Source of the DNA: a virus
Length of the DNA stretch: 64,000 nucleotides
IMG/VR virus record: IMGVR_UViG_3300042295_000443
Location: 25,162 to 89,161 of that record
Direction: 5' to 3' (one strand)
The notes beneath the pieces were generated by a model that saw only the letters and a list, made by a program, of their open reading frames with translations, did no database searches and was not told the DNA's origin. Numbering within the stretch: the stretch's first letter is position 1; every line of letters starts with the position of its first letter. Positions 3,753 through 64,000 of the stretch are shown here, piece after piece. A program made the translations under genes and the position numbers.

Positions 3753-5960
3753 TTATTTAAAGTTCTTAAAAGCTGATCTTTTAATATATTGTCCATTAAC
3801 TTTAGCTCTGTTTCCTCCCATATGACGGAAAGGACTGCTATTTAATTTAAACAAATTTTCTGACTTTTGCAAGTTTTTACTTGCATCATCCATAATAACT
3901 CTTTTAGTATAACCTATATTTGCTTGTTGTATTCTCATAAATGCAACCATTGCAGAAAATGCAACTAGTCTATCCACGTTTAAACCATCTGTATAGGCAT
4001 GCATTTCTTTAAGCAACATTATATCTGGGATCCTTTCTATACCATAAGTTGTTCTTACTATAGTTCCATCAGGTTTAGTTACAGTATCTAGTTCTTCTTT
4101 ACAGTATTCTATGACATAACTTAATAAGTGATGTTTAAATAGTACTCCTGTATTTCTCCAACCATACTCCTGGAAGACGTTAGCATTTGCACCTAAGTCT
4201 TTTAAGAACATTATTTGGTTTTTAGGAACTAAATATCTTTGTCTTTTTCTAGATATCATGTATAAGATAAATAAAGAAATATTATTCTCAATTACAGTTT
4301 GAGCATTATACCACTCTATGATCATTTCTAATCTTTCATGTGTTTGCTTGATATCATCAAATCTTCCACACCATGCTGCTACTATTTTATCTTGTTCTAT
4401 ATATGTTTCTGTTTCATCTACTGTAACTTTAGTTACTTCTACAGGAGCTTTCATTACATAGATAGAACATAATGAGTCTGAAGTAGTTGTCTTTCCTTCT
4501 GCTACAGGGTCAATAGATGCATAGTACTGGCCATAAACGGGATCTTTAACTGGTCTTTCCCATACTACTAAACATCCAGTTTTATCTTCTGTCTTTTTAG
4601 ATAGTGGAAATTCAGATATTGGTAACTTATTACTATCTTTTACTTTAATCTTTCCTGTATCATCTCTAGATATATCTAGATATTCATAAGCATATTCTTT
4701 ATCTTCTATTCTTCTTATTTGAGCAGTAACAAGATGTGATGGAAACTTAGATACTTTTCTATGTTTAAATGCTTCTGCTATATTTCTAGGGTGCTGAGAT
4801 ATTTCTAACTGGTAATCTTCAGGGTCCATAGATTTTTTTATCTTCTCAAAATAATCATCTAATGCTTGTAATGCTTCTTCTACAAGTGAATTACCATAAT
4901 CATCTATGTAAGGAGGCATTGACCATTGTTCAGGAATAAATAAACCTGACTTACCTAAAGTACCTTGCTCATCTAACAAATCTGTCTCTACAGAATAGAT
5001 ATCATTAGCTTCTGGATCTAGAATCATTTTCTTTAATGGCTCACATTGATCTAAATCACCTACTGATCCTGCTGCTATAAATAATCCTGTAGTAATCATA
5101 CCTGATTTAAGAGCTGGTTTAATGTATCCAAATGTTGTATTCATTTTAGGAGCAATACCTGCCTCTTCATGAAAGAAATATTTAACTGGTCCACCTACTC
5201 CATTTGTTGGATCTTTATCAAAAGACATTCCTTGTAAAGTTCCTTTTAATCCTACCTCAGCTTTTCTATCTCCTTTTCTTACTTCAATCTTTTGTTGCCA
5301 CATCATTACTTTATCTGGAGACATTGGTCTATACCAAGCAGTGTGTTCATTTAAGAATGCAGCATATTCATTTAGAAATTTCCATGTTCCTTTCTCATTA
5401 ATGTAATCTTTAAGACTAGCTCCCATCTTAAGTGTAACTCCAGCCTCAAACCATAACTGATTAATTAGTTTACCTGCATGAAAATAACTAGATGCAATCT
5501 GTCTTTTCTTTAATATAGCAGCATGTAAATAGAATAGTTCTGCAAGTACCTCATATAATGCCATATGATATTGTGCATCCCTTATTTGAGCAAAGTCAAA
5601 CTTCTGTTGTTCCTTATCAAATATAGGTAAGAAGTTTAACCACATATAATAATCTCTGGTAAGATACCATGTTTTATTATCTGATTTAACTAATACTCCT
5701 AGTCTACATTTATTTTTCTGATCATCCCAGTAATTAACAAAGTCTCTAGATTTAAATGGTGCAGTACAGTATACTTTAGTTTCTCTAAACTTTCTAGACT
5801 CAGCAATAAATATTTCATTTGTTGCTTCATTAAACTCATATTTTCCAGGTTCTCTAAATATAGAAAATAAAAAGTCTCTCCATTCATCTCTTGATTCAAA
5901 AGATGTTGTTGTCCATGTACCATTATCCCATGTAGGAATATCTTTATATATGTCATCCAT
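3753..5960 (-). CDS. terL: Terminase large subunit
   Basis: This 735-residue protein is the packaging motor ATPase and headful nuclease. The N-terminal half holds a degenerate Walker A-like segment (KKRQIASS, about residue 151) and a Walker B-like segment ending FFHEEAG (about residues 262-268). The C-terminal RNase H-like nuclease begins with SIDPVAEG (about residue 484) and contains further acidic residues in VIENN and the RIPDIMLLKEM stretch. Length fits crAss-like TerL proteins, which are longer than most. It is packed tightly between a 171-residue conserved gene and the portal gene. Confidence 0.88.
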   Translation of the reverse strand: MDDIYKDIPTWDNGTWTTTSFESRDEWRDFLFSIFREPGKYEFNEATNEIFIAESRKFRETKVYCTAPFKSRDFVNYWDDQKNKCRLGVLVKSDNKTWYLTRDYYMWLNFLPIFDKEQQKFDFAQIRDAQYHMALYEVLAELFYLHAAILKKRQIASSYFHAGKLINQLWFEAGVTLKMGASLKDYINEKGTWKFLNEYAAFLNEHTAWYRPMSPDKVMMWQQKIEVRKGDRKAEVGLKGTLQGMSFDKDPTNGVGGPVKYFFHEEAGIAPKMNTTFGYIKPALKSGMITTGLFIAAGSVGDLDQCEPLKKMILDPEANDIYSVETDLLDEQGTLGKSGLFIPEQWSMPPYIDDYGNSLVEEALQALDDYFEKIKKSMDPEDYQLEISQHPRNIAEAFKHRKVSKFPSHLVTAQIRRIEDKEYAYEYLDISRDDTGKIKVKDSNKLPISEFPLSKKTEDKTGCLVVWERPVKDPVYGQYYASIDPVAEGKTTTSDSLCSIYVMKAPVEVTKVTVDETETYIEQDKIVAAWCGRFDDIKQTHERLEMIIEWYNAQTVIENNISLFILYMISRKRQRYLVPKNQIMFLKDLGANANVFQEYGWRNTGVLFKHHLLSYVIEYCKEELDTVTKPDGTIVRTTYGIERIPDIMLLKEMHAYTDGLNVDRLVAFSAMVAFMRIQQANIGYTKRVIMDDASKNLQKSENLFKLNSSPFRHMGGNRAKVNGQYIKRSAFKNFK

Positions 5961-18160: not shown

Positions 18161-18464
18161 TTACACAAAGTTATATGGTTTTTTAGTATGTGAGATGTAG
18201 AGGTTGGGTGCTATGATACAACCCCCCGCCAAATCCTGTGGAGGTGGTACCCCCCACCAACTTGAGGAGTGTGTCATAAATTCTAGGAAATATTTTAGAA
18301 AAAAATCCTGCTGGGAAAGAAACCTAGCTGCTACAACAGGAGAGGAGAGACAAGAGGTGACATGCTATGTCTACTACATGTACTATGCTAGTGATGTGCT
18401 AGCAAGAGGAGGGAGGCAGGGTGCTATATAATAGGGGTGTGTACTATATGTATAATATAGTATA
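18161..18464. other. Intergenic region without a convincing gene
   Basis: This stretch of about 300 bases is richer in G and C than its surroundings, with C6 runs near 18220 and 18251, a small hairpin (GGTGG/CCACC near 18243-18259) and purine-rich blocks. A 75-codon frame at 18204-18431 has unphage-like codon use and no start context, and I reject it. The end carries a perfect 7-bp inverted repeat, ACTATAT/ATATAGT around GTATA (18443-18461), four bases before leader copy 1, probably promoter or operator sequence. Confidence 0.5.
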
Positions 18465-18503
18465 GCCTTCGGCAGATTATATAACAGCTTATAACTACTA
18501 TGG
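18465..18503 (+). ncRNA. Leader element copy 1
   Basis: It starts GCC-TTC-GGCAG (3-bp stem, 3-nt loop), then nine spacer bases, then ACAGCTT (18484-18490) and an ACTACT stretch. The start codon of the 30-codon gene lies at its 3' end. First of seven copies between 18.4 and 20.4 kb. Confidence 0.65.
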
Positions 18504-18592
18504 AACCAACTAAACTTTGTATCATGATTGTATATGCTGTAATAAACGGAGTAGTTACTGTTAAGGAATGGGTGTTAAATCCTAATGCTTAA
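18500..18592 (+). CDS. Leader-linked 30-residue peptide
   Basis: This 30-codon ORF (ATG 18500, TAA 18590-18592) begins inside the 3' end of leader copy 1 and ends just before a hairpin. The product is hydrophobic in the middle (IMIVYAVINGVV), consistent with a small membrane peptide. Its position between leader and terminator, like the larger genes downstream, supports it being translated. Too short for a firm call. Confidence 0.45.
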   Translation: MEPTKLCIMIVYAVINGVVTVKEWVLNPNA

Positions 18593-18598
18593 TGTTTG

Positions 18599-18620
18599 AG
18601 GGAGCTGTAATAGCTCTCTT
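18599..18620 (+). terminator. Terminator-like hairpin
   Basis: An 8-bp stem (18599-18606 with 18612-18619, one G-U pair) with loop GUAAU. The following U tract is poor, so it may pause or process rather than terminate. Leader copy 2 begins 12 bases later. Confidence 0.45.
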
Positions 18621-18632
18621 AACTATGCTTAA

Positions 18633-18671
18633 GCCTTCGGCAGATGGTACTACAGCTTATAACTGCTAAGG
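18633..18671 (+). ncRNA. Leader element copy 2
   Basis: GCC-TTC-GGCAG at 18633-18643, ACAGCTT at 18652-18658, then AACTGCTAAGG. It lies 38 bases upstream of the ATG at 18709. Confidence 0.68.
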
Positions 18672-18708
18672 ATATATTATATTTATTAACCATCTAAAAC
18701 TTAAAAAG

Positions 18709-18975
18709 ATGAGCAATGTTAAAGGATTCTTAATCAGTGTAAGTGACACTGTAAAAACAAACACTAATGGAACTGAATTCAGATCTTGCATAGTAGCCAT
18801 TGAGGGTGAAAACTATTTTGCAAAAATCTGGGAGAAATCTGTTTCCAAAGCTGTTGTTGGCAATGAGTACACTGTTGAAATGATTGTTGATGGTGAAAAC
18901 TTATGGTTAACATTGTTAACTGGTGTTACTGCAACTATTGCAACACCTAATATGCTTGCACACCTACTTAAATAA
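18709..18975 (+). CDS. Small OB-fold-like protein, paralogue of the 19806 gene
   Basis: This 88-residue protein is about 60% identical by eye to the product of 19806-20081, including RSCIV, GENYFAK, EKS, LWLT and the ATIATP motif. The alternation of beta strands (KGFLISVSD, EFRSCIVAI, NYFAKIWEK, EYTVEMIVD, ENLWLTLLTGV) suggests a five-stranded OB-like barrel, the fold of small single-stranded nucleic-acid-binding proteins. Both genes stand behind a leader element and before a hairpin, so the whole unit was duplicated. Binding to RNA or DNA is a guess. Confidence 0.65.
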   Translation: MSNVKGFLISVSDTVKTNTNGTEFRSCIVAIEGENYFAKIWEKSVSKAVVGNEYTVEMIVDGENLWLTLLTGVTATIATPNMLAHLLK

Positions 18976-18984
18976 TAGGTAGAA

Positions 18985-19015
18985 GATGACACCCTTAATT
19001 GGGTGTTATCTTTAT
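18985..19015 (+). terminator. Intrinsic terminator
   Basis: A 10-bp stem (18985-18994 with 19001-19010, one G-U pair), loop of six bases, then UUUAU. The next leader begins at 19022, only six bases further. Confidence 0.7.
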
Positions 19016-19021
19016 AGTTAA

Positions 19022-19060
19022 GCCTTCGGCAGGAAATGCTACAACTTAAAACTACTCATA
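19022..19060 (+). ncRNA. Leader element copy 3
   Basis: GCC-TTC-GGCAG at 19022-19032, then ACAACTT (19041-19047, one change from ACAGCTT) and ACTACT. The ATG at 19036 lies within this element and is not used as the start of the following gene. Confidence 0.65.
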
Positions 19061-19089
19061 GTATTAATGTTAAATTTAAACTATATATC

Positions 19090-19293
19090 ATGGACACAAC
19101 AACTGTATTACAAATTATTGCTATGCTTGAAGGTGATGCAAAATCATACATTAAACACCTTGATAATACTAATGACCCTTTTGAAACAGGGTACATTAAA
19201 GGTTATCATGATGCTTTAACAAAGCATGCCCACATGCTGCAAGAGTATATTGAACTGCAAGTAAATTATGCAGAGAATGCATTAGGGGAGTAA
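19090..19293 (+). CDS. Small helical hypothetical protein
   Basis: This 67-residue protein starts from the ATG at 19090 (MDTTTVLQII). The upstream ATG at 19036 is rejected because it lies inside leader copy 3. It is almost entirely helical (residues 5-62), with His and Glu on one face, and has the pattern GYIKGYHDALTKHAHM seen in small phage proteins of unknown role. Its TAA stop lies in the apical loop of the terminator at 19284-19304. Confidence 0.6.
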   Translation: MDTTTVLQIIAMLEGDAKSYIKHLDNTNDPFETGYIKGYHDALTKHAHMLQEYIELQVNYAENALGE

Positions 19294-19304
19294 TCCCCTT
19301 TTTT
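19284..19304 (+). terminator. Intrinsic terminator with GUAA tetraloop; stop codon in the loop
   Basis: Stem AGGGGA/TCCCCT (19284-19289 with 19294-19299) is capped by GUAA and followed by U6. The TAA stop codon at 19291-19293 lies within the GNRA tetraloop. The same hairpin occurs at 20968. Confidence 0.8.
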
Positions 19305-19330
19305 AAACTGTAATCCCTAAATTAAAATAT

Positions 19331-19435
19331 ATGTTAATAGTTATTGGAAATGTAATGTTTGTTGCTATAATAGTGTTTATTGCCCGTTGTGGCTACAAGC
19401 TAGAAAAGGCTGATGAAGAAAAGGAAAGGGCTTAG
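19331..19435 (+). CDS. Small membrane peptide (34 residues)
   Basis: This 34-codon ORF (ATG 19331, TAG 19433-19435) encodes a hydrophobic helix (VIGNVMFVAIIVFIA, about residues 4-18) followed by a charged tail (KLEKADEEKERA), a typical single-span peptide. The stop codon is the last three bases of a UUAG loop of a terminator, as in neighbouring units. No leader element precedes it; an A-rich start context does. Confidence 0.6.
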   Translation: MLIVIGNVMFVAIIVFIARCGYKLEKADEEKERA

Positions 19436-19450
19436 GCTCTTTCTTTTTTT
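19424..19450 (+). terminator. Intrinsic terminator; stop codon in the loop
   Basis: Stem GAAAGGGC/GCTCTTTC (19424-19431 with 19436-19443, one G-U), loop TTAG containing the TAG stop of the 34-residue gene, then U7. Confidence 0.78.
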
Positions 19451-19473
19451 GCTCAATCATTCATTCTTATGGA

Positions 19474-19494
19474 GTGGCTTGCGCCACACCTTTT
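19474..19494 (+). terminator. Second terminator-like hairpin
   Basis: A 5-bp GC-rich stem (GTGGC/GCCAC, 19474-19478 with 19483-19487) with loop UUGC, followed by ACC and UUUU. It lies 18 bases before leader copy 4. Confidence 0.5.
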
Positions 19495-19511
19495 ATGTCT
19501 TTCTTTCAATG

Positions 19512-19650
19512 GCCTTCGGCAGGAGTCTCTACAGCTTAGGACTTCTGTGGAGTGTGCCTTTGCCTATGAGGATAAGATGTTACACACTTATAAAGTTCTC
19601 TCTGAAAAAGAACTTGGACAACTACATAGTAATATGTGGTTGTTTTTTTT
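19512..19650 (+). ncRNA. Candidate small RNA: leader copy 4 to terminator
   Basis: Leader copy 4 (19512-19550: GCC-TTC-GGCAG, ACAGCTT at 19531-19537, ACTTCT) is followed by 67 bases and then a strong terminator (19618-19650). No convincing gene lies between; frames of 29 and 33 codons exist but run through the terminator stem, where the duplicated copy at 20150 keeps the helix, not the peptide. It is therefore probably a 139-nt RNA. Alternatively it encodes a membrane peptide of 33 residues from the ATG at 19577. Confidence 0.55.
19618..19650 (+). terminator. Intrinsic terminator with GUAA tetraloop
   Basis: An 11-bp stem (19618-19628 with 19633-19643, one U-G pair) is capped by GUAA and followed by U8. 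It is homologous to the hairpin at 20150-20186, with different end pairs and a GAAA cap there. Confidence 0.85.
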
Positions 19651-19660
19651 GGTAGTTCAA

Positions 19661-19696
19661 TGCTTGGCAGCTGCATAGTAAGTACTGTGTAGCAAA
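19661..19696 (+). repeat. Stem-loop repeat, copy A
   Basis: It contains CTTGGCAG, a 6-bp hairpin CATAGT/ACTGTG around AAGT, and the block TACTGTGTAGCAAA (19683-19696). The same block and the TTGGCA part recur at 20228-20267. Each copy lies between a terminator and a leader element. Confidence 0.55.
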
Positions 19697-19716
19697 ACTA
19701 ATTTATTCTAGATTGG

Positions 19717-19755
19717 GCCTCCGGCAGGTGCCTTTACAGCTTTCTACTGCTGTGG
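19717..19755 (+). ncRNA. Leader element copy 5
   Basis: GCC-TCC-GGCAG at 19717-19727, ACAGCTT at 19736-19742, then ACTGCTGTGG. Here ACAGC can pair with GCTGT to form a second hairpin. A further 7-bp hairpin (19764-19770 with 19776-19782) separates it from the ATG at 19806. Confidence 0.68.
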
Positions 19756-19805
19756 ATATAAGATTGTGAGAAAGCCTCACAACAAAACCAACCCCTATTT
19801 GCAAA

Positions 19806-20081
19806 ATGGAGAAAATGTTAAGAGGTACTCTTATCAGTTTTTCTAATGAGGCAAAAGCCAATGTGAATGGTACTCAGTACCGTTCTTGCATTGTCAATAT
19901 TGGAGGTGAAAATTACTTTGCAAAGCTTTGGGAGAAATCCTTGGCTAAGGCAGTAATTGGAACTGAGTACAATATTGAGGCTGTAGTAGATGGTGATAAC
20001 TTGTGGTTAACGTGCCTTACGGGCGTTAGTGCAACTATTGCTACTCCTGCTACATTCGCTGCTTTGTTAGCAGAATTGTAG
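19806..20081 (+). CDS. Small OB-fold-like protein, paralogue of the 18709 gene
   Basis: This 91-residue protein aligns along its whole length with the 88-residue product of 18709-18975, with shared LISFS, RSCIVNI, GENYFAK, LWEKS, EYNIE, DNLWLT and ATIATP. The predicted five-stranded barrel is kept, and differences fall mostly in loops and the C terminus. Retention of two diverged copies in a phage suggests different binding targets or timing. It is followed by a GAAA-capped terminator related to the one at 19618. Confidence 0.65.
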   Translation: MEKMLRGTLISFSNEAKANVNGTQYRSCIVNIGGENYFAKLWEKSLAKAVIGTEYNIEAVVDGDNLWLTCLTGVSATIATPATFAALLAEL

Positions 20082-20149
20082 GAAGTATCCTAGACTGAGT
20101 AAGACTCGGAGTGTACCACTACTTGGCAACAGAAGTGGAAAATATTAAT

Positions 20150-20186
20150 GAACTACATAGAAATATGTGGTTCATTACTTTTTTTA
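20150..20186 (+). terminator. Intrinsic terminator with GAAA tetraloop
   Basis: A perfect 10-bp stem (20150-20159 with 20164-20173, one U-G) is capped by GAAA, then ATTAC and U7. The core ten bases are identical in position to the stem at 19618, but the loop differs (GAAA against GUAA). Confidence 0.85.
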
Positions 20187-20190
20187 AACA

Positions 20191-20202
20191 GCCTTTGGCA
20201 GA
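20191..20202 (+). ncRNA. Leader element copy 6 (degenerate)
   Basis: GCC-TTT-GGCAG is present, but the downstream ACAGCTT is lost (TATACAAAAT instead). It lies directly after the terminator U run. No gene follows before the next repeat, so it may be decayed. Confidence 0.45.
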
Positions 20203-20227
20203 AAGAGTATACAAAATAAAAGATAAT

Positions 20228-20267
20228 ATTTGCCTTGGCAAGTACTAATAGGTACTGTGTAGCAAAT
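20228..20267 (+). repeat. Stem-loop repeat, copy B
   Basis: Arms ATTTGC (20228-20233) and GCAAAT (20262-20267) enclose AGTAC/GTACT and the block TACTGTGTAGCAAA shared with copy A at 19683. The outer stem is longer than in copy A, which keeps only TGC/GCA. Confidence 0.55.
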
Positions 20268-20289
20268 AGTCTATATATATACTTAACCG

Positions 20290-20330
20290 GCCTCCGGCAG
20301 GTGGGGCGTACAGCTTTCAACTTCTTTGAG
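20290..20330 (+). ncRNA. Leader element copy 7
   Basis: GCC-TCC-GGCAG at 20290-20300, ACAGCTT at 20310-20316, then AACTTCTTTGAG. It opens a structured region without a gene rather than an ORF. Confidence 0.65.
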
Positions 20331-20331
20331 T

Positions 20332-20680
20332 GTGGTTAGGCCACGGTCATCTAGACCTACTAACCACCTATGTAACTATTAAAACTAGATTATTATAACA
20401 AAGTCTCCAGCCTGTGCAACAATGTGACTTTGGTACTGATAATCAGGTAGTTATAAAATGAGATATGTGAGAAAAAGAGGAAGAATGAGATTAACTATTA
20501 ACCTATCCAAGAATTTATAGGCAGAAATAGTCAGCAGAAATGGTCTTAAAGCCTAATATTATATAGTATATAGCTAAAACAGACTTAGTATATACATTAA
20601 GAATAGTATTATCTCTTTCTATAGTTAGAGTAACATAATAACTTATTCCGGAATTAAATAAATTTAAAACTATATATACT
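20332..20680 (+). ncRNA. Gene-free stretch with structured RNA
   Basis: These 350 bases hold no convincing gene. The first third is structured: an 8-bp helix (20332-20339 with 20360-20367) encloses GGTC/GACC (20345-20348 with 20354-20357); a 7-bp helix follows (20399-20405 with 20426-20432); then CTGA/TCAG around TAA (20436-20446). The rest (20460-20680) is A-rich with only weak hairpins and probably carries the leader of the next gene. With leader copy 7 at its head this could be one small RNA of about 160-200 nt. No U-rich terminator is evident. Confidence 0.5.
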
Positions 20681-51285: not shown

Positions 51286-51324
51286 AAGGGAGATTAGCAG
51301 AAATGCTTTTCTCCCTTTTTTTTT
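51286..51324 (+). terminator. Strong intrinsic terminator between converging blocks
   Basis: An 8-bp outer stem (51286-51293 with 51310-51317) encloses GCA-GAAA-TGC, a GNRA-capped inner hairpin, followed by U8. The U run overlaps the stop codon region of the minus-strand giant gene (51323), so the two blocks meet with almost no spacer. Confidence 0.85.
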
Positions 51325-54300
51325 ACATCAACGCCTCAGAAATTTCTTTCTTCTTAATTGCCCAATAAGGTGCAGCATTCTTACCAGATAAACCAATTAA
51401 GGCACCAAGATGATTATATATTTTATAATTACCTTCTTCTTGCCAAGAATATGGACCAACATCTTGTTTATAAAGTGCTTTATCACTTCCTGTTGCCATA
51501 TAACCTAGATCTATTAAAATTTTACCATATACTCCTAATGTTGGACTTACTACAATAGTACTTGTTTCAGAAAACTTTGTCCATTCATTTAATCCTACAA
51601 AAGGTAATGGTATAAAAGTTTGATTTTCTCTTTTAACCATCATTAATTGATACAGTAAATGATTAGCCATCCATCCTGCTCTGCCATATTTTTCTTCCCT
51701 TTCTTTTATTTTTTTAAATCTATCTTCATCACCTACACTATATCCAAAAATATAAGTTATTATTACACCTAATAAGACTAATAACATACCTTCTGTAAAT
51801 ACTTTTTTCATAACAGATTTTTCTTCAGCTGTCATTAAAGGAGCATATGTATTATATTTTGTAATTAATTTCCAAGAAGATTGAAGAAATTGTATATAAC
51901 TACCTCTCTTACTTTCATCTAAATCCCAATCCCATGTATCTCCACCAAAGTTTTCTTTAGATGTATCCATTTGAAATCTTTCTAAAAACATACCTGTAGC
52001 ATATTTTCTAGAAAAACTAAATAAGTTATAAAGTAAATATTTTTCAGCAGCAGGTGAATCAAGATCATTTGTAGTACCATTTAATCTTTTATTAGAGGCT
52101 GCCATTACTCTTTTTATTTTATTTAATTCAGTACTTCTTGCAATTACTAAGCTATCTCCTATTTCAATATTTTCAAGACTAGTTATTTTATTTTTTAACT
52201 TAAGTTCTTCTACAGTTATATTATACTGTTTAGCAATTGAATCTAGGGTATCTCCTTTAACTAAAGTATGATCTACAGGAGCAGTTCCCCATTCAGGATT
52301 TATTCCATCTTTTAATTTTATTGAACCATCTTTAGCAGTTTCAAAAGCATTTGCATATCTTATCTGTAAAACAGAACCATCAGGTTGTATTTGATCAACC
52401 ATTTGTTTTTCAAGAATACTAAAACCTATTTCAAAAGCACCTTGTTTTTCTAATAGTCTTCTATCTGAATACATCCAACTACCTTCTATTAAATCTTTAA
52501 CTCCTGTTCTTGTAGTTGATTTACCAAAGTCTTTTTCTGCTTTACCTGGATCCATACCAAATAATTCAACCATCTGCATATTTAAACTTTTCATTCCTCT
52601 TGCATAAGCTCCTTGACCAGCATATTCAAATATAGCTTTAGTAGCTGTAATTTGACCTCTTGCCATAGATGGAAAATCAATATACTTTCCTCCAGCTGCA
52701 AAGACTAGTTTCTGATAATTCATTCCCCATTTATTCTTAACAGATGATACAGGATTTAAAGCATAAAAAGCTCTACTTGCTTGAGCCATTAAGCCTCTTG
52801 CAACTTTTGTAATCTTAACATTATCAGATTGAAATTCAGCAGTAACTTGACCATAGAAAGTTCTGTCCATAAAATCATTAAATAACTGTAGTCTTTTATT
52901 AGTAGATCTTTTTAAGAACACGGCAGATTTATCATTAATTTTTGATAATGTTTTACTTGCTCTATCTAACTTATCTAATGCGTTATCAGGATCTGCATAA
53001 ACAGATTGTATAGCTTTTGCTATTGATTCATTTTCTATTAATGTATTTTGTTTATCTAAAGAATACATATAGTTCCATTGAGATCTAAGAACATCTGTAG
53101 AAACTGCATTAATATCAAGTTTAAACAAACCTCTTACAGGAACTCTAGTAATTGGATTTCCTTGTAGATCAGTAGGTACAAATAATAGATCATTATCAAA
53201 ATTAAATCTATTTTCTGGATCATCAGAAGCAGCTTTTACTGAATCTTTTATATTTATAGCAATACTACTTGATTTTTCTTTTATGTCCTCTTTTAATTTA
53301 CCTTTTTGAAGATATTCTAAATTATCTTTTATTCTAAATCTTGCAAAATCTAAATACATTTTAGATGGATATTGTTTACCCTCTTGCATCTTTAAATAAT
53401 TTTCTTTTAGTTTTTCTAAAAGTAAAAACTGAGCATTATTTTTTTGTTTAAGTTCATAATACTCTTTATTCATGTACTTATCATTAGCATGACCTATTGC
53501 ATATTCAATAGGCAACATATTATTTCTATTATCTACATGAACTCCAACCTTTAATTCAACTTTTTTAGTTTTAGGATTGTATCCTGTAAAAAATTCATCT
53601 TTAATTTTTGTTACTGAATACTTAGCTATTGGAACTCCTTCAAAAGGTATTTGTTCTTTTGTTATAGGGTCTAATAATATTGTATGCTTATAATAACCTT
53701 CATCTGCAGGCTTACTAATATTCCAAGCTTTTAATCTAAAATATTTTAAAATAGATTCTCCTGTTTCTACATCATATCCTGTTCTTGTATAATGATTTTT
53801 ATCAAACCATTCAGCAAATTCAGGACTAGCTGCTCTTGCAGCTGCAACATCAGCAGATTTAAGCCAATTATCTGCCGTGTCTACAGTAAGTGGGGAAAGA
53901 TCTAAATTACCTAAAGCATTATTAAATGCTGTAACATAGTGATCTGTACATTCTACATTAGTTAACTCAGCTAATTTTTTATATTCTTTTCTTAACTGAG
54001 TTGTTTCTATAGAAGTTAAACCAAATATAGTTTTTTCAGAAGCTAATTTTTTATACTCAGCTTGTTCTTCTGCACTCATTTCAGACATTAAACCAAGACC
54101 AATAAGATCTTCATAATATCTAAACTTAGCAGCATCATCTTTGGATAATCCAGATTTTCTATCAAAGCTTTCTTGTGCTTCAACTATTTCTTCTTCAATA
54201 GCTTTAAGTCTATTAATTTGATCAGGAGCTAATCTTAAACCATTAGGTTCTCCATCCTTATCAGTTACCCTATTTACTAAATTATATCTTTGTTCATATA

Positions 54301-57228: not shown

Positions 57229-60200
57229 TTACTGACAATCAAGTGATGTTCTTTCTATTCCTGGTAAACCTTCTGGAGAATTAAGATTATTTTCAGCTTC
57301 ATATTGTTCTCTATCACGCATTGCTTCAGATAAATCTTCAAAAGATGCTGACTCATTATAAGCTCTTATACTCTCTTGTTGTTCACTTTCTTCTTGAAGT
57401 ATATTACTTGCTATTGCAAATGCTTGATTATATGCTGAACTACCTTTATTTAAGCCAAGAGCATTTAATATAGCATCTATTATTTCTTCAAATAAGTTCT
57501 TATAATTTTTAACATCAGCAGGTGCTAATTCTTTAAGTTGAGTAATAAATTTAGCATCTGTAAACAAAGCTACAAAAAATTCATCAATTGTATAATTAGC
57601 ATAAGGTCCAGTTAAGTCTTTTGTATTAAATTTTCCTAGCTGATTAATGCTATGATCATATAATTTTTGAAAGTCTTTATTAAATTCATTATTTTTTCTT
57701 AGTGCTTTATAAGATAGAGCATGTAAAATTTCATGAAGTAATAAAGTCTCACTTTGACCATTTCTTACATTTGCAAATTCTGCAATAGAAATATTATTAT
57801 TATAATTATCATAAAACCCTCTACTTAAAAAGTTAGGATTATTATTAAAACCAACTTGTTCTTTTAATAAAACATCTACATCATTTATATTAGCAAATGA
57901 TTTTAAATGTTTAGCTAATGTATTTAGTGGATGATTTGATTCACCTATAGCATTTAATAATACTGATACCTTTACTATCTCTGAATCTTTAAAATACTTT
58001 TCTCTTATGTTTACATCAGGCTTATTACCAGATATAACATTTTCTTGAATACTAGATGGTAATTGAGTAACAACTTTAGCTGGTGTTTTAGGCATTCCAG
58101 GTTCTAAATTTTTAACTCTTCTTAAAGTAATAGATATTCTATAACTTCCTTTTTCATAATTTTTTCCATCTATTTCTGTAGTTATTGCAGGTAAAAATCC
58201 ATCTTGCTTTGATGGAAAAGTTCTATGCATTACTTTTCTATTTTGTCCATTTAAACCAAAAATATATGAATCTCCAGCATTAAGAGGAGTTGGTTCATAT
58301 TTACCAGTTTGTTGAACACTAAAATTACCACTACCACCTATATTAAGAACAAGAACAGGATAACCAATAGCATCAGCAGCTTCATCTACATCATTATGAG
58401 CACTTATAAAAGTTTCATCCTTATAAAGATTTATTATAGCTCCATCATAATCAGTAGCATCTATACCAGTAGCTTTAGACATTAATGTTTTAATTCTAGG
58501 ATTAATAGGACCTAATGGTTGACCATTAATAGATACTTCATAATAACCATACTTAGCACTACTTCCAGGTACAATAATATTTTTTATTTCAATAGCTTTA
58601 TAATTAGGATTATTTGATTTATAATCCCATCTTAAACCTAATCCAATCATTACATTTGCACTAGTAGCTTTATTAGTTGTAGCTCCTTGTTTTTCAATAT
58701 AAGGTTTAAGAATATTAAATAACTCAAGTTGTTCTTCTTTAGTTATAACATTTCTTTTAATTTCAACACCTGGAATTACCACTTCTGTTTCAACACTAGT
58801 AGATGGTTGAGTAATAGATTTACTAATCAATCCTGTTTTATTAGCATTTAGCTCTGTAACTAATCCATATCTACTTAACAATTCATTTTGTAACCATTCT
58901 GCAAATCTTGTTGGTATTTTAGCTAAATCAGAGGCAAATCCTTGAGGAAATATTTTAGTTTCATACTTATCTATTTTAGCAAATTGTTCTAAATTTACTT
59001 TTTTAAATAACTCAAAATCAGCTTCTGTATCTTGAAAATCTTGATTCCACCCCCCAGTTATTTTTGAAGTAGCTCTATCTTCTTCATATACATAATACTT
59101 TTTAGTTACTATACCTATTGCATTTGGATTATTTCTAATAACTGCACTTCCTCCACCAACTCTTGAAGAGCCTATAGAATTTATATTTTCAGTAAATATG
59201 TAAGCAGTGTTAGGATTTTCTTTTGGCGAATCTTTAGTCCAATTGTTTTTAACTATTGAAGATTTACTATTAACACTAGTAGATGGTTGAATAGGTTTAT
59301 TAACTAAATTTTTCTTTAATAAAGCTAACACAGATGAATCAAGATCTTCAACATTAACTACAGGTACTTCTGGTGTTTCAACAACTGGGGCTTTTTTAAA
59401 CTCTGTTGCTTTAGGAGCTACATAATTCTTAATTTTTTTATTAAGAGGATTTGTAAGTAAATTAAAAATTGTATTTAAAGTATTCACATCTAGTACCTTT
59501 TCCTCAAATATTACAGATGCTGTTTGCATAACATTGAGATAATCATCATAAGGTAATGCTTCATTAAATCCTAAAGCACTGTATCCTATACCATGTTGAT
59601 AGATCATCATTAGAGGTAGTTGAGCAAATAACTTACTAATCCTTGCATTATCTTCAGTATTTGAAGATTTCTTAATAGTGCTATCTGCTAGGTCAAGTAA
59701 ATTTTGATAATATATTTCTGCAAGTTGCCCGTCCTTAAGCATTTTAACATCATTTAATGTTAATACAAAATTTTGAACAATTTCAACTTTAGGAGCACCA
59801 AATGCTTCTTCTCCAGTTTTAGCAAAAACTTTTGTTATTGTTAAAGGTTTACTAAATTGAGAAATAATTGGATATTTATTTTTTAGTTGTGGAAACTCTT
59901 GTATGATATTCATAACCATATCTGTATATGAATTATTTTCAATACCACTTATAGCTTGTCCATTATATGCATTAAGAAGAGCTTGCTGATTTGTATATTC
60001 CTCATATGCTAATTTAGATACCTGATTTTCAGGAACTCCTTCATTACTTAAAATACTTTTTATTTTTAAATAATCTTTATTAGTTTTTAAAGAATCAATA
60101 GGGAATGCATTTCTCTGATATTCTCTTTCAAATACATATCTTACATAAGAAGATTCATTAGGGAACATATTGTCCTCAGTATCAAATCCTTTTAAACCTG

Positions 60201-63200
60201 TATTATTATAGGCACTTGTTGTTGTATTAGTATTTAAATAAACTTTATCAGCATAATCTTTTTTTAATTTTGCTTCATCAACAAATATAGTATCACCAAC
60301 TACTTGTGCACCTCTTATAACTTTATCTTTTTGTTTAACTTTTAAATTGTTAAACTCAGATGGCATATTTGTTAACTCACCATTCTCATCTATAAAGTGA
60401 GACATGTAGTTTTGAAATATGTAATTAGGAATTGCATTTTTAAATTGTGTAATAAATTGACTTACACCATCTTGTCCTTTTCCAAATCTATCAGTTATAA
60501 GATTAGGATGTGTTTCTATTTTTTGAAGAATATAATTAGTCACCCTATCATTATTTCTTAATTGAAATAAAGGAATTATTAGATCTTTAATTAATTGGTT
60601 ATCAAAAAAGCTACCTAATATAGAATCTTGCATAGCTTCAACTAAACCATCATCTAATTTTGAAAGTTCTTTAGCATCTTCTAGTGATACATTTCTTCTA
60701 ACTATTTCTTGAATAGTTTTAGAAGTTTTAGTATCTGGATTACTTAATGATTTAAGAGTACTAAATCCTTTAGAAGATTTTTCAAGTTCTAGAACATGTA
60801 AGAAAACTGCAAGAGCTTTAGGAGAAGTTGAATCACCAGTCATGACAATATCTTCTAATTCTTTTAAACTAAATTCTTTTATACCTTTAGTAGCTGCTTT
60901 TGCTGTATAATAAAAATTTGCATTAGATACAGCAAATTCACCAATTTGTATAAAGACTCCAGTAGCTGGTAGTTTTCCTTGTTTAGGATAATTTACAGAA
61001 TAAAGTTGTTTTATATCAATAGTACCTTTAGAAAGATCATTAAGTAGCTTTTGCTTTGTAGTTGGTACTTTTTCTAAATCAAATACTTCTATAGCCTTAC
61101 CATTTCTATCAGTTCCTGGTTTAGTTCCTATAATAATATTTATCTCAATATCTTCTCCATAAGGAGTTTTTTTATTTAAAGCATCTTTAAGTTTTAAAAG
61201 ATTAGCTTCAGGCATAATCTTCTCTAAATTTTGTTTAATACTAGATTGATATAGACTTGATTCAAAAATAGATTTATAATTTAGTACATTATTTGCTGCA
61301 GTATATTTTGCAAATGCAATATTATAATCTTTATCAATTAATCCAGTAACTGGAGCATAAGCACTTTTTATAAATCTTTGTTGTTCAGCATATGCTCTTA
61401 CTAATGGTTGTGATACCATCATTATAGCTTCCATTCTAGGAACACCTGCTTTAAATAAGAAAAGTAACATTGGAACAAGTTCTAAATTTCCTTGTATAAA
61501 AAATATCCAAGCATCTTTTTCAGCATCTAGGGCACCATTTAAACTTTGAGAAAATAATTCTGAAATTTCATCCATTCCATCTGCACTATAAATACTTGAT
61601 AAAGATATTTTACCATCTTTAGTTTTATTGTGTGGAACTAATAGTCTTACATCATAATCAATATCTCCTTCAATTAATTTTCCAGCTTTATTATAACTTG
61701 ATTCTTTATAAGTTAAAGGCATTGTTGCACCAACTGAATTAAATATTGGATTTAATGCATTCTCTAGAGCTATAATACCTAATACTTTTTTAGCAACCAT
61801 GTTTTCATCATGCTTGGCCATATTGTATTCTACTTCTAATGTATTTGTTGGACTAATGCCTTGACTAGTAGCTCCTGTAAATTGTTTCTTTAAATTATCA
61901 GCAATTTCTTTTAATAAATATGTATCATTAGGTCTTATTAGGCTTACAAAATTATCTTCTAGTTCTAGAATACCTCTTATTGTAGTAATTAAATTATTTT
62001 CAGAAGCAGCTTTTTGTGATTTAATTAAATTAAAGACATCTTTTTTTCCATCTTTTGTTTTATTTAATCTAGCTACTTCAGCTTCTAAAGCTTCAGTAGA
62101 TATTCCTCCTTTAACAAAATTGCCATCTTTATCAATATGTGGTAAAAATGTAGTTAATTTATCAATGTCAAAGTCAGCTCCTGATTTAGCAACTATTTCT
62201 GTTGGAAGAATTATAATACCTCCAGCAGAAGGATCTAAAAACTCATATACTTCCATGAATTCCATAGAGTTAACTCCTTGTACTGGTATTCTAACACCAG
62301 TAAGAGTTACTGCTTTTCTGTTATCATCTTTATTTAACCATTCTTCATCTTTAATAAGTTCATTAAGTCTTTGTCTTGTTCCTATAGGTTCTCCATTTGT
62401 ATCTTTTAATTTTAAAAGATTTAAAAAGTCTCCTTGTAAAGAAATAGCAACTTTCATTGCAGATGTATTACTAACTAATTTTACTTTTGGTTTTTTACCA
62501 GCAAGTACAGCTTCTAAATAATCAGTTTCAACTCTTAAGTTGTATCTATTTCTAGCAGTATAGTAGTTTGCTTGATCTACTAGTATACCTTTATTTATTT
62601 TAAGTAATTCAGCAAGTTTTTCTTTAGTGTAGTCTTTATATTTAACATCAAGATCTGTAGACTCTTCACTAAAGAAAGGTAAATTATTTGTACCAATGTA
62701 TTTTTTTTGGTCTGCTAAAGTAGCATTTCTGAATCTTGTTTGTGAATCCCAAATTCCATTAGTCATAGAACTTGCTACTTGAACAAAAGCTTCACCTTTT
62801 ATATTTTGTTTAATTAATCTTTTTTCTACAAGAGAAACAAGAATCTTTTCTATCTCATCTGCTTTTAAGTGTAATGATAAATCAGTCTTAAGTGACTTGT
62901 CTCTATTGAGACCAACCATTTGAATTAGATGTTCTGGTAACTCTCTTTTTTCAAGTTCATCTTGAACAACATTTAAAAACTGATTAATGTTACCTGTATA
63001 CTTTTTAGTTTTAGGATCATATGTATATCCTATTTCATTAAGTAATTCAAGTTTAAGTACAGCACTGTGATGATCTACAGCAAGTTCATATGCTCTAATA
63101 GCTTCTCCATTCTTCTCTTCATTAATTATTTTGCCATTCTCATACATACCGTTAAGAATTAACTTTCTTAACTGAGTAGGAAATATTGTTTTATTTTTAA

Positions 63201-64000
63201 ATTTAGTTGGGACAGCTGTAACATTTTTTAAATACTCTACATAAATAACATTAGGTGTAAATTTAATGTCTGCCTTTAAAGTTTTATTATCAGTATTTTT
63301 TTCATAGATTTCATCTGCTACTGCTTCACCTTTTTCATTTACTTCAGATGTAACACTACCTACTTTAGAACCAGATTGAAAAGTAACATACTGAATATTC
63401 TTATTCATCATTTGCTCATGCAAAGATTGAAGATCAGAATTTTGAATCATACTTGGTATAAGAGGCATAAGTGAAAACTTATGCATTGCATTTACAGGTA
63501 ATCCTGTACCAGATAAGTGACCAAAATTTTGTAATTTATATGCTGGAAAGAACTCTGTTATATCTGCAACAGATACTTCAGTACCATTTATTATTTTTTG
63601 AAATAAAACTTCTTGAGCATTAGACCAATTATTTTCATTTGTTTTTAATAACCTATAGCCATCTAGTGTGATCCATCCTTGACCATCACCTTCTTCCATA
63701 TCTATATACTTGGAAACTTCTTGGTCTACTCTAGTTTTTACAGCAGCAGCAACTTGACCTTTAGGTAAAACTTTATTAAATCTTTTAGTATAATCTTTTG
63801 TTAAAGCATTTTCTATTTCTTCAAGATATAAGGATGTTCTCTTTACTTCTTGTATAATAGCTGTATTAAGTTTTCCATCATAATTAATAGTAGGGAAACC
63901 ATTCTTTGTTGCAGCATAAGATGTATTTGCTAAATATCCATTACTAAAATTTTGAGCAGCAATATCTGTTCTTATTGATCTACCTCCAGATGTTAATCCT
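57229..64000 (-). CDS. Giant virion RNA polymerase-type multidomain protein (5' end cut by window edge)
   Basis: The frame runs unbroken to base 64000, so the ATG at 63699 (numbered residue 1 here) is internal and at least 100 more residues lie upstream. DFDID at 509-513 (bases 62161-62175), within SGADFDIDKL, follows an RIPVQG and ILPTE pattern like the RxP...G...I.LxP...NADFDGDQ order of the RNA polymerase beta' double-psi barrel; Ile replaces the middle Gly. About 1490-1610: a DUF7831-like phage domain (NTAYIFTENINS, GSAVIRNNPNAIG). About 1690-1850: an AlkB-like 2OG-Fe(II) oxygenase (H1768, D1770, H1825, RISITLR). HEILH at 1989-1993: a second zincin motif. Likely injected and used for early transcription. 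Confidence 0.74.
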   Translation of the reverse strand, partial: GLTSGGRSIRTDIAAQNFSNGYLANTSYAATKNGFPTINYDGKLNTAIIQEVKRTSLYLEEIENALTKDYTKRFNKVLPKGQVAAAVKTRVDQEVSKYIDMEEGDGQGWITLDGYRLLKTNENNWSNAQEVLFQKIINGTEVSVADITEFFPAYKLQNFGHLSGTGLPVNAMHKFSLMPLIPSMIQNSDLQSLHEQMMNKNIQYVTFQSGSKVGSVTSEVNEKGEAVADEIYEKNTDNKTLKADIKFTPNVIYVEYLKNVTAVPTKFKNKTIFPTQLRKLILNGMYENGKIINEEKNGEAIRAYELAVDHHSAVLKLELLNEIGYTYDPKTKKYTGNINQFLNVVQDELEKRELPEHLIQMVGLNRDKSLKTDLSLHLKADEIEKILVSLVEKRLIKQNIKGEAFVQVASSMTNGIWDSQTRFRNATLADQKKYIGTNNLPFFSEESTDLDVKYKDYTKEKLAELLKINKGILVDQANYYTARNRYNLRVETDYLEAVLAGKKPKVKLVSNTSAMKVAISLQGDFLNLLKLKDTNGEPIGTRQRLNELIKDEEWLNKDDNRKAVTLTGVRIPVQGVNSMEFMEVYEFLDPSAGGIIILPTEIVAKSGADFDIDKLTTFLPHIDKDGNFVKGGISTEALEAEVARLNKTKDGKKDVFNLIKSQKAASENNLITTIRGILELEDNFVSLIRPNDTYLLKEIADNLKKQFTGATSQGISPTNTLEVEYNMAKHDENMVAKKVLGIIALENALNPIFNSVGATMPLTYKESSYNKAGKLIEGDIDYDVRLLVPHNKTKDGKISLSSIYSADGMDEISELFSQSLNGALDAEKDAWIFFIQGNLELVPMLLFLFKAGVPRMEAIMMVSQPLVRAYAEQQRFIKSAYAPVTGLIDKDYNIAFAKYTAANNVLNYKSIFESSLYQSSIKQNLEKIMPEANLLKLKDALNKKTPYGEDIEINIIIGTKPGTDRNGKAIEVFDLEKVPTTKQKLLNDLSKGTIDIKQLYSVNYPKQGKLPATGVFIQIGEFAVSNANFYYTAKAATKGIKEFSLKELEDIVMTGDSTSPKALAVFLHVLELEKSSKGFSTLKSLSNPDTKTSKTIQEIVRRNVSLEDAKELSKLDDGLVEAMQDSILGSFFDNQLIKDLIIPLFQLRNNDRVTNYILQKIETHPNLITDRFGKGQDGVSQFITQFKNAIPNYIFQNYMSHFIDENGELTNMPSEFNNLKVKQKDKVIRGAQVVGDTIFVDEAKLKKDYADKVYLNTNTTTSAYNNTGLKGFDTEDNMFPNESSYVRYVFEREYQRNAFPIDSLKTNKDYLKIKSILSNEGVPENQVSKLAYEEYTNQQALLNAYNGQAISGIENNSYTDMVMNIIQEFPQLKNKYPIISQFSKPLTITKVFAKTGEEAFGAPKVEIVQNFVLTLNDVKMLKDGQLAEIYYQNLLDLADSTIKKSSNTEDNARISKLFAQLPLMMIYQHGIGYSALGFNEALPYDDYLNVMQTASVIFEEKVLDVNTLNTIFNLLTNPLNKKIKNYVAPKATEFKKAPVVETPEVPVVNVEDLDSSVLALLKKNLVNKPIQPSTSVNSKSSIVKNNWTKDSPKENPNTAYIFTENINSIGSSRVGGGSAVIRNNPNAIGIVTKKYYVYEEDRATSKITGGWNQDFQDTEADFELFKKVNLEQFAKIDKYETKIFPQGFASDLAKIPTRFAEWLQNELLSRYGLVTELNANKTGLISKSITQPSTSVETEVVIPGVEIKRNVITKEEQLELFNILKPYIEKQGATTNKATSANVMIGLGLRWDYKSNNPNYKAIEIKNIIVPGSSAKYGYYEVSINGQPLGPINPRIKTLMSKATGIDATDYDGAIINLYKDETFISAHNDVDEAADAIGYPVLVLNIGGSGNFSVQQTGKYEPTPLNAGDSYIFGLNGQNRKVMHRTFPSKQDGFLPAITTEIDGKNYEKGSYRISITLRRVKNLEPGMPKTPAKVVTQLPSSIQENVISGNKPDVNIREKYFKDSEIVKVSVLLNAIGESNHPLNTLAKHLKSFANINDVDVLLKEQVGFNNNPNFLSRGFYDNYNNNISIAEFANVRNGQSETLLLHEILHALSYKALRKNNEFNKDFQKLYDHSINQLGKFNTKDLTGPYANYTIDEFFVALFTDAKFITQLKELAPADVKNYKNLFEEIIDAILNALGLNKGSSAYNQAFAIASNILQEESEQQESIRAYNESASFEDLSEAMRDREQYEAENNLNSPEGLPGIERTSLDCQ

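What the first reader, a model, noticed from the sequence alone, without database searches (positions are those of the whole stretch)
18465..20330. Seven-copy leader element family, GCC-3 nt-GGCAG ... ACAGCUU
Copies start at 18465, 18633, 19022, 19512, 19717, 20191 (degenerate) and 20290. The 3-bp stem is invariant while the loop varies (UUC, UCC, UUU), and ACAGCUU follows at a fixed distance in six copies. Each precedes a small gene or RNA. Copies 2-6 begin a few to about 25 bases after a terminator-like hairpin or a stem-loop repeat. In copy 5 ACAGC pairs with a downstream GCUGU.
Basis: seen in the sequence. Interest (0 to 1): 0.87.

Follow-up and report, generated by a model that had tools for sequence, protein, structure and literature searches.

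The report
Early promoter array with DNA mini-hairpins
The repeated element most likely marks the switches that turn on the first genes of a crAss-like phage; a short conserved box seems to be the core switch, and some copies carry a tiny hairpin of the kind used by phage N4, which matters because how the RNA polymerase packed in these very common phages finds its genes is an open question.

Summary
The seven GCC-NNN-GGCAG copies are real (0 of 100 shuffles reach seven). The window is part of a crAss-like phage record whose 2156-aa protein carries the DFDID motif of virion RNA polymerases. The core is a box, TACARCTT-N3-ACT, repeated up to about 11 times per phage in the early-gene array, usually just after a terminator-like hairpin and about 39 nt before an ATG. 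Related phages keep the architecture but each uses its own 8-nt block, as expected of promoters that follow a phage polymerase. The GCC hairpin is optional: its stem varies with pairing kept, its loop stays T-N-C (59 of 80 triloop units; shuffle maximum 4), so the template strand reads C-GNA-G, as in phage N4 early promoters. It sits at the promoters of an OB-fold, SSB-like gene (24 of 24 units) and of most units without an ORF (23 of 27). Best explanation: early promoters of the packaged polymerase, some with an N4-like DNA mini-hairpin. No transcript data exist here; start sites and hairpin function are inferred.

The parts
18465..18473 (+). mini-hairpin copy 1, GCC-TTC-GGC (template GCC-GAA-GGC)
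18483..18496 (+). box 1, AACAGCTT-ATA-ACT (putative early promoter core); ORF of 22-30 aa follows
18633..18641 (+). mini-hairpin copy 2, GCC-TTC-GGC
18651..18664 (+). box 2, TACAGCTT-ATA-ACT
18709..18975 (+). 88-aa OB-fold, SSB-like early protein
19022..19030 (+). mini-hairpin copy 3, GCC-TTC-GGC
19040..19053 (+). box 3, TACAACTT-AAA-ACT; 67-aa ORF 19090-19293 follows
19512..19520 (+). mini-hairpin copy 4, GCC-TTC-GGC
19530..19543 (+). box 4, TACAGCTT-AGG-ACT; 29-33 aa ORF or RNA follows
19717..19725 (+). mini-hairpin copy 5, GCC-TCC-GGC
19735..19748 (+). box 5, TACAGCTT-TCT-ACT
19806..20081 (+). 91-aa paralogue of the 88-aa OB-fold protein
   Evidence: (D1)
20191..20199 (+). degenerate copy 6, GCC-TTT-GGC, no box; also present in relative L004
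20290..20298 (+). mini-hairpin copy 7, GCC-TCC-GGC
20309..20322 (+). box 7, TACAGCTT-TCA-ACT, last unit of the array; no ORF of 40 aa or more within 220 nt
57229..63699 (-). 2156-aa putative virion RNA polymerase with DFDID motif (proposed reader of the boxes)

Best explanation
The element is a composite early promoter, not an RNA leader. The box TACARCTT-N3-ACT (with T-rich DNA before it and an A/T-rich stretch after it) is the core promoter of one early transcription unit; each unit runs terminator, box, short gene, terminator. The most likely reader is the phage's own packaged two-barrel RNA polymerase, because the box sits only in the early array, because each related phage has changed the 8-nt block in all its copies at once, and because no other conserved promoter-like sequence lies between terminator and gene. 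At some units, above all the OB-fold (SSB-like) gene and the terminal unit, a small hairpin lies upstream, typically with 9-13 nt between loop and box, whose template strand reads C-GNA-G, the stable DNA mini-hairpin that phage N4 uses in its early promoters. I think it acts in DNA: extruded or exposed on the template strand, it raises or regulates initiation at those units, perhaps under feedback from the ssDNA-binding protein made there. Shown: sequence conservation, position, covariation, gene association, the polymerase gene. Inferred: promoter function, which polymerase, start site, DNA-level action, feedback.
For: Arrays of the box in many contigs: 39 stretches with hairpin plus box, up to about 11 boxes per phage. 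Boxes overlap an ORF of 80 aa or more in 11 of 153 cases, against 1890 of 3060 random 14-mers. Terminator-like hairpin within 60 nt upstream in 111 of 153, against 50.4 in shuffles. Box-to-ATG median 39 nt in units without hairpin, mostly 30-48. Columns upstream of the box carry little information beyond T-richness. The 8-nt block is homogeneous within a phage and different between phages: ACCAT(T/A/C)TT 11 of 11 (G022), TCCAACTC 5 of 5 (G034), TACTTCTT 7 of 7 (G028), TACTGTG(T/C) 10 of 10 (G048). All box-bearing records fall in one 33-row side of the tree of 51 polymerases; G023, sister of G022 there, also has ACCATTTT arrays. Hairpin: 59 of 80 triloop units have loop T-N-C, shuffle mean 0.8, maximum 4; stems GCC, TGC, GAC, TCC, GCT and longer arms keep pairing; 2-bp GC-TTC-GC (3 units) and GC-TTAC-GC (2 units) give GNA and GNNA on the template, loops reported to make very stable DNA mini-hairpins (PMC4686876, passages), while the RNA form of GC-UUC-GC is +0.6 kcal/mol. 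Three hairpins of this type in N4's early region show the same T-N-C signature (PMC4496689 passages). Hairpin at 24 of 24 OB-gene units and 23 of 27 no-ORF units. Later scan: 6 of 6 new units of the hairpin-bearing gene families have it.
Against: No transcript, start site or binding data. Boxes were not found in cultured crAss-like phages phi14:2 and crAss001 or in Flavobacterium phage Fpv20 (0 of 4 records including N4); a variant block was looked for in part of the first two only. Only about 10 of 51 polymerase-bearing records show box arrays; many are fragments or were not searched for a variant. Homogeneity within a phage could partly be copying between neighbouring units. The hairpin-box distance varies, unlike a rigid promoter. 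The label test on the tree was weak (149 of 500 shuffles as low). Folding energies do not favour DNA over RNA for 3-bp stems, and TGC-TNC-GCAGC can also fold as GCT-NNNN-AGC.
Confidence: 0.62

Rival explanations
1. Post-transcriptional element: the box, with or without hairpin, is a 5'-UTR binding site for a phage RNA-binding regulator of early mRNAs; real promoters lie elsewhere.
For: Regulator and sites would also co-evolve, giving the per-phage 8-nt blocks; the box lies about 39 nt before the ATG.
Against: Box and terminator T-run nearly touch and no other conserved upstream sequence is seen; units without an ORF carry the box as well; 2-bp hairpins are unstable as RNA.
Confidence: 0.17
2. 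The box is an early promoter read by host RNA polymerase, alone or with an early phage factor; hairpin as in the main model or irrelevant.
For: Position and arrangement fit any promoter.
Against: Phage-wide changes of the 8-nt block are hard to explain with one host sigma factor; by recall the Bacteroidetes consensus (TTTG, TAnnTTTG) does not resemble the box; a review reports rifampicin-resistant early transcription by virion polymerase in phi14:2 (PMC10136315 passages).
Confidence: 0.13
3. The mini-hairpin plus AGCTTTT is a weak intrinsic terminator or insulator that stops read-through into the next promoter (the box itself may still be a promoter).
For: Hairpin followed by T-rich DNA; lies between units; P23-45 virion polymerase uses an unusual terminator motif (PMC10770324 passages).
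Against: Stems of 2-4 bp are short for a terminator; stronger terminators often stand just upstream as well; it is tied to certain downstream genes, not to every unit.
Confidence: 0.15
4. Recombination boundary or mobile repeat: the boxes are homology tracts that let early gene cassettes shuffle.
For: Gene content of the arrays varies strongly while boxes stay.
Against: Only about 14-22 nt, tightly spaced to the ATG; shuffling would be a by-product. Target duplications were not looked for.
Confidence: 0.06

Closest known systems
Phage N4 virion RNA polymerase early promoters (Schitoviridae)
   Same: Hairpin upstream of early genes with 3-nt loop, C-G closing pair and G-N-A on the template strand; T-rich DNA after the 3' arm; [quoted passage not shown]
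   Different: N4 stems found here are 5-7 bp, these mostly 3; the N4 central loop purine is not kept (31 of 59); here a separate sequence box is the constant part and many units lack the hairpin; no N4-type polymerase was found in the record.
Thermus phage P23-45 pre-early promoters (conserved AT-rich motif ascribed to gp96 virion polymerase)
   Same: Two-barrel virion polymerase proposed to read a conserved motif at many early units, shared by relatives with the same polymerase.
   Different: The word hairpin does not occur in that paper's text (PMC10770324); motif and polymerase family differ; here the block switches between relatives.
T7/T3/SP6-type phage promoters
   Same: Same architecture with a few bases changed together with the polymerase (recalled, no call).
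   Different: Polymerase is of another fold; no evidence of homology.
crAss-like phage early transcription (phi14:2, crAss001)
   Same: Same kind of giant DFDxD polymerase (by the literature) and similar divergent early/late layout.
   Different: The box was not found in either genome; the original phi14:2 paper was not held.

Membership tests
N4 virion RNA polymerase hairpin promoter | Hairpin with 3-nt loop, G-N-A on the template strand | tested here: met
   59 of 80 triloop units have coding loop T-N-C; closing base C in 60 of 80; N4 control. Many units have no such hairpin.
N4 virion RNA polymerase hairpin promoter | Stem of 5-7 bp | tested here: not met
   Mostly 3 bp, range 2-6.
N4 virion RNA polymerase hairpin promoter | Central purine of the loop on the template strand | tested here: not met
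   TTC 29 and TCC 2 give a purine, TGC 19 and TAC 9 do not: 31 of 59.
N4 virion RNA polymerase hairpin promoter | Phage encodes an N4-type (T7-like) giant virion polymerase | tested here: not met
   tblastn of N4 vRNAP against all 89 kb: best E 0.30; self-control E 0.0. The PF00940 search was uninformative.
N4 virion RNA polymerase hairpin promoter | Start site 11 nt from the loop centre; dependence on SSB and supercoiling | not testable with these tools
   Needs 5'-end mapping and in vitro transcription.
Promoters of crAss-type (two-barrel) virion polymerase | Phage encodes the polymerase | tested here: met
   DFDID in the 2156-aa ORF; DFDxD or DYDVD at the matching place in 50 relatives.
Promoters of crAss-type (two-barrel) virion polymerase | Sequence block changes along with the polymerase | tested here: inconclusive
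   Box-bearing rows share one side of the tree and G022/G023 share a block, but the label test was weak (149 of 500).
Promoters of crAss-type (two-barrel) virion polymerase | Initiation by the purified enzyme at the box | not testable with these tools
   Wet-lab assay.
Known RNA families (Rfam 15) | Covariance model match at gathering score | tested here: not met
   0 matches in the window; only hits far below the families' gathering scores.
UNCG RNA tetraloop hairpin | C(UNCG)G with stem continuing outward | tested here: not met
   In the tetraloop register the next pair fails (GCC-UNC-GGC, UGC-UUC-GCA, UGAC-UGC-GUCA); the triloop register pairs in all (by inspection).

The most novel reading that the evidence does not exclude
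A two-barrel (crAss-type) virion polymerase, unrelated in fold to N4's T7-like enzyme, has convergently come to use N4-type template-strand GNA mini-hairpins at selected early promoters, and the phage-encoded OB-fold protein made from those promoters plays the part that SSB plays for N4, in a feedback loop.
Probability: 0.25. Interest if true: 0.92.

Novelty: new variant of a known kind. Interest (0 to 1): 0.8.

Why it matters
crAss-like phages are among the commonest phages, and a giant virion RNA polymerase is one of their hallmarks. I found no paper in the held library naming promoters for it: searches 'Crassvirales + promoters + RNA polymerase' 0 papers, 'crAss-like + hairpin + terminator + early' 0, 'crAss-like + early promoter + RNA polymerase' 1, on another phage; 'crAss-like + virion RNA polymerase + promoter' 7, of which I read passages of two; the review passages I read name none. 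Most subscription papers, including the phi14:2 polymerase paper, are not held. If right, the boxes give a concrete template for assaying such polymerases, six natural block variants to map specificity, and a case of convergent use of a DNA mini-hairpin in transcription.

Tried and rejected
Rejected: Rfam RNA family; tRNA or tmRNA; UNCG tetraloop (register fails); ACAGC/GCUGU pairing as part of the element (copy 5 only); N4-type polymerase in the record; strict N4 promoter membership (stem length, central purine). Led nowhere: megablast against named phages, no match; 41-nt consensus against phages, 58 weak records with no place covering 80% of the query; the Flavobacterium Fpv hit overlaps a coding gene on the other strand; close protein relatives of the 88-aa gene, one contig only; PHROGs and Pfam on the OB genes, no family; solved-structure search by sequence with the OB alignment, only a chance-level hit, E 0.51; 8-mer array search in parts of phi14:2 and crAss001 and inspection of their early upstream regions and Fpv20's, no clear array; consensus fold of the terminal unit, weak, -0.94 kcal/mol, 9 pairs; folding energies as a DNA-versus-RNA test, not decisive; one match in bacterial genome contigs, a Clostridiales MAG contig, not followed. 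The second look at folds gave Z up to 7.3 only, middling; PriB, SSB and many other OB proteins are tied.

Rows dropped and limits of counts. One search found 376 box hits, 157 distinct; its printed output was cut. For one search I dropped four loci (L221, L228, L235, L250) and five single boxes as likely chance, leaving 144, collapsed at 80% identity to 113. The 58 'hairpin' units (loop rule T-N-C or T-N-T) include about four that are not the mini-hairpin type (GGGG-TAC-CCCC, TACCCT-TTT-AGGGTA, CTAG-TAT-CTAG, perhaps AAGGGC-TTT-GCCCTT); its 68 'none' include at least four with GCC-TNC-GGC closer to the box than the position filter allowed (L007, L011 twice, L101). The 153 units are the 113, plus 36 from the variant records, plus 4 window boxes that the collapse had dropped. 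ORFs are the first ATG ORF of 40 aa or more within 220 nt, so a few belong to the next unit, and copy 3 of the window was assigned an ORF in another frame than the 67-aa one. Searches covered 50 of the 79 polymerase loci, itself the best 80 of 136; one search covered 32 handles. In one search most rows are near-copies of G022, G034 or each other; the 6 of 6 counts only L304 (2), L308 (2), L281 (1) and L327 (1).
Full report
WHAT THE WINDOW IS. The window is bases 25162-89161 of an 89,161-bp virus record. A minus-strand block (terminase and portal match phage head-and-packaging families; the terminase matches crAss-like and other Bacteroidetes phages) is followed from about 18.4 kb by a plus-strand block that begins with very small genes; two giant minus-strand ORFs lie at the far end. 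The 2156-aa ORF has the motif ADFDIDK and its matches are crAss-like phages, all partial; 136 IMG/VR stretches encode relatives and the 50 that I took into a tree carry DFDxD or DYDVD at the corresponding place. [quoted passage not shown] 'Early' rests on this layout and on the literature on relatives, not on transcripts of this phage.

THE OBSERVATION. Seven GCC-NNN-GGCAG copies are present at the stated places on the + strand and nowhere else in the record; chance gives 0.19 on average. Six copies are followed by ACARCTT, after 8 nt (copies 1-5) or 9 nt (copy 7); copy 6 lacks it.

THE CORE IS THE BOX. A scan for the long motif returned 13 contigs, one (L008) a chance match in unrelated DNA. 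Searching for the downstream part alone showed relatives where TACARCTT-N3-ACT recurs many times in a few kilobases with no GCC hairpin at most copies, for instance ten boxes (four of them with one mismatch or less) within about 2.3 kb of record G050. A wider scan gave 39 stretches with hairpin plus box. Among 113 boxes left after removing near-copies, TAC-R-CTT and A-CT are close to invariant, partly by the search rule, the middle three bases are free, and upstream only T-richness is seen. With the variants below, 153 units were studied.

PLACE. Boxes avoid coding sequence (11 of 153 overlap an ORF of 80 aa or more, random 1890 of 3060). A terminator-like hairpin with T-run lies within 60 nt upstream in 111 of 153 (letter shuffles 50.4; random 60-mers 456 of 2000); 42 of 153 lack one by this rule, including three in the window. 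In units without mini-hairpin the first ATG ORF starts at a median of 39 nt. The layout is terminator, box, short gene, terminator, over and over.

THE BLOCK SWITCHES BETWEEN PHAGES. In related records the architecture stays but the eight letters change, and change in all copies of that phage: TACTTCTT (7 of 7, G028), TACTGTG-T/C (10 of 10, G048), TCCAACTC (5 of 5, G034), ACCAT-T/A/C-TT (11 of 11, G022), TTCAGCTY (3 of 3, G017). These counts are of copies found by searching for the block, so a copy with a quite different block would have been missed. ACCATTTT arrays recur in further contigs, among them G023, whose polymerase is sister to that of G022. All box-bearing records lie on one side of the polymerase tree, in a group of 33 of 51, but the formal label test was weak (149 of 500 shuffles as low). 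Promoters that follow a phage polymerase would look like this; a host sigma factor gives no reason for it.

THE MINI-HAIRPIN. Of 153 units, 80 have some triloop hairpin with a stem of 3 bp or more upstream (shuffle mean 10.6, maximum 19), and 59 of those 80 have the loop T-N-C (shuffle mean 0.8, maximum 4). Stems vary with pairing kept: GCC-TNC-GGC, TGCT-TTC-AGCA, AGTGC-TTC-GCACT, CTATGC-TTC-GCATAG, CTTGC-TAC-GCAAG, TGAC-TGC-GTCA, TGTCC-TTC-GGACA; others have loop TTT. With a C-G closing pair required and 2-bp stems and 4-nt loops allowed, 59 of 153 units qualify (shuffle mean 0.98, maximum 4), among them GC-TTC-GC and GC-TTAC-GC. Read on the template strand these are C-GNA-G, or C-GNNA-G. A paper on DNA mini-hairpins (PMC4686876, passages) says GNA or GNNA loops with at least two G-C pairs make extraordinarily stable DNA hairpins. 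As RNA, the 2-bp GC-UUC-GC is not stable (+0.6 kcal/mol). Standard folding energies do not separate DNA from RNA for the 3-bp forms, so the case for DNA rests on the loop rule, the 2-bp stems and the parallel with N4.

N4 AS YARDSTICK. In the early region of phage N4 the same kind of script finds, on the + strand, GTTGC-TTC-GCAAC at 90, AAGAAGC-TCC-GCTTCTT at 557 and AAGCTGC-TCC-GCAGCTT at 4546, besides seven other + strand hairpins with other loops. The three fit the hairpin promoters described for N4 (PMC4496689, passages): template-strand hairpin, loop with a sheared G-A pair, single-stranded-DNA-binding protein needed. That these three are the N4 promoters is my inference from position and form. 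The sequence GC-TNC-GCAGC-TTTT is shared by N4 at 4546 and by units of the ACCATTTT and TCCAACTC phages. Differences: stems mostly shorter, no central-purine rule (31 of 59), many units without hairpin, variable distance to the box, and no N4-type polymerase in this record (best E 0.30). It works like, but is not shown to be, an N4 promoter.

WHICH GENES CARRY IT. Grouping the first ORF behind each box shows that the hairpin marks particular units: 24 of 24 units assigned to one family of about 95 aa, and 23 of 27 units without an ORF of 40 aa or more, many of them the last of the array, while most other early genes lack it. The family includes the window's 88- and 91-aa proteins. Its model (pLDDT 87.8) has an OB-fold order of strands; the best Foldseek match is a human SSB (E 7e-4, TM 0.58), and the second look gave only middling Z, up to 7.3, with PriB, SSB and other OB proteins. 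So it is an OB-fold, SSB-like protein of untested function. In contigs fetched later, 6 of 6 new units whose gene is of this family or of a second family of 97-99 aa (with the motif NPKTG) had the hairpin, with stems not used before such as TGGC-TGC-GCCA. In this window, unlike many relatives, all six boxes carry the hairpin.

HOW IT MOST LIKELY WORKS. Step 1, inferred: after injection the virion polymerase recognises the box at each early unit. Step 2, supported by position: it transcribes a short gene and stops at the next terminator. Step 3, inferred: at units with the mini-hairpin the template strand can form the GNA hairpin, which changes initiation; the OB-fold protein made there may stabilise or melt it, a feedback like the SSB role in N4. 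I rate the box as a promoter at about 0.75, as a virion-polymerase promoter at about 0.62, DNA action of the hairpin at about 0.45 and feedback at about 0.2; these are judgements.

NOVELTY. Phage early promoters for virion polymerases are known (N4; P23-45, PMC10770324 passages), so this is a new variant of a known kind. I found nothing in the held library on promoters of crAss-type polymerases, but most subscription papers are not held, including the phi14:2 polymerase paper.

Noticed in passing
window 57229-63699 (-): The putative virion RNA polymerase ORF carries a 2OG-Fe(II) oxygenase domain (Pfam PF13532, E 7e-12, residues 1645-1860) and DUF7831 behind the polymerase part.
   Followed up: no
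window 20309-20680; last unit in L004, L006, L011, L013, L103: The last unit of the array has no clear ORF but a conserved stretch near GACTTTGGTACTGATAATCAAGTAGTTA in relatives, perhaps a non-coding RNA; consensus fold weak.
   Followed up: partly
window 18243-18258; before the first box in L001, L011, L158, G017, G022, G034, L227: GGTGGTACCCCCC or a close variant stands shortly before the first box of the array in many of these phages; in the window no box follows it at that place.
   Followed up: no
window 19676-19696 and 20246-20266: Stem-loop repeat ending GTACTGTGTAGCAAA; similar TGTAGCAAA stretches recur in the last unit of relatives.
   Followed up: no
window 18753-18948 and 19853-20048: The two OB-fold genes are duplicates, 71% identical in DNA over 196 nt, each with its own hairpin and box.
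   Followed up: partly
window 51323-57199 (-): The second giant ORF (1958 aa) has a LysM domain near its C-terminus.
   Followed up: no
L264: One contig labelled as a Clostridiales MAG carries a hairpin-plus-box match; possibly a phage contig.
   Followed up: no
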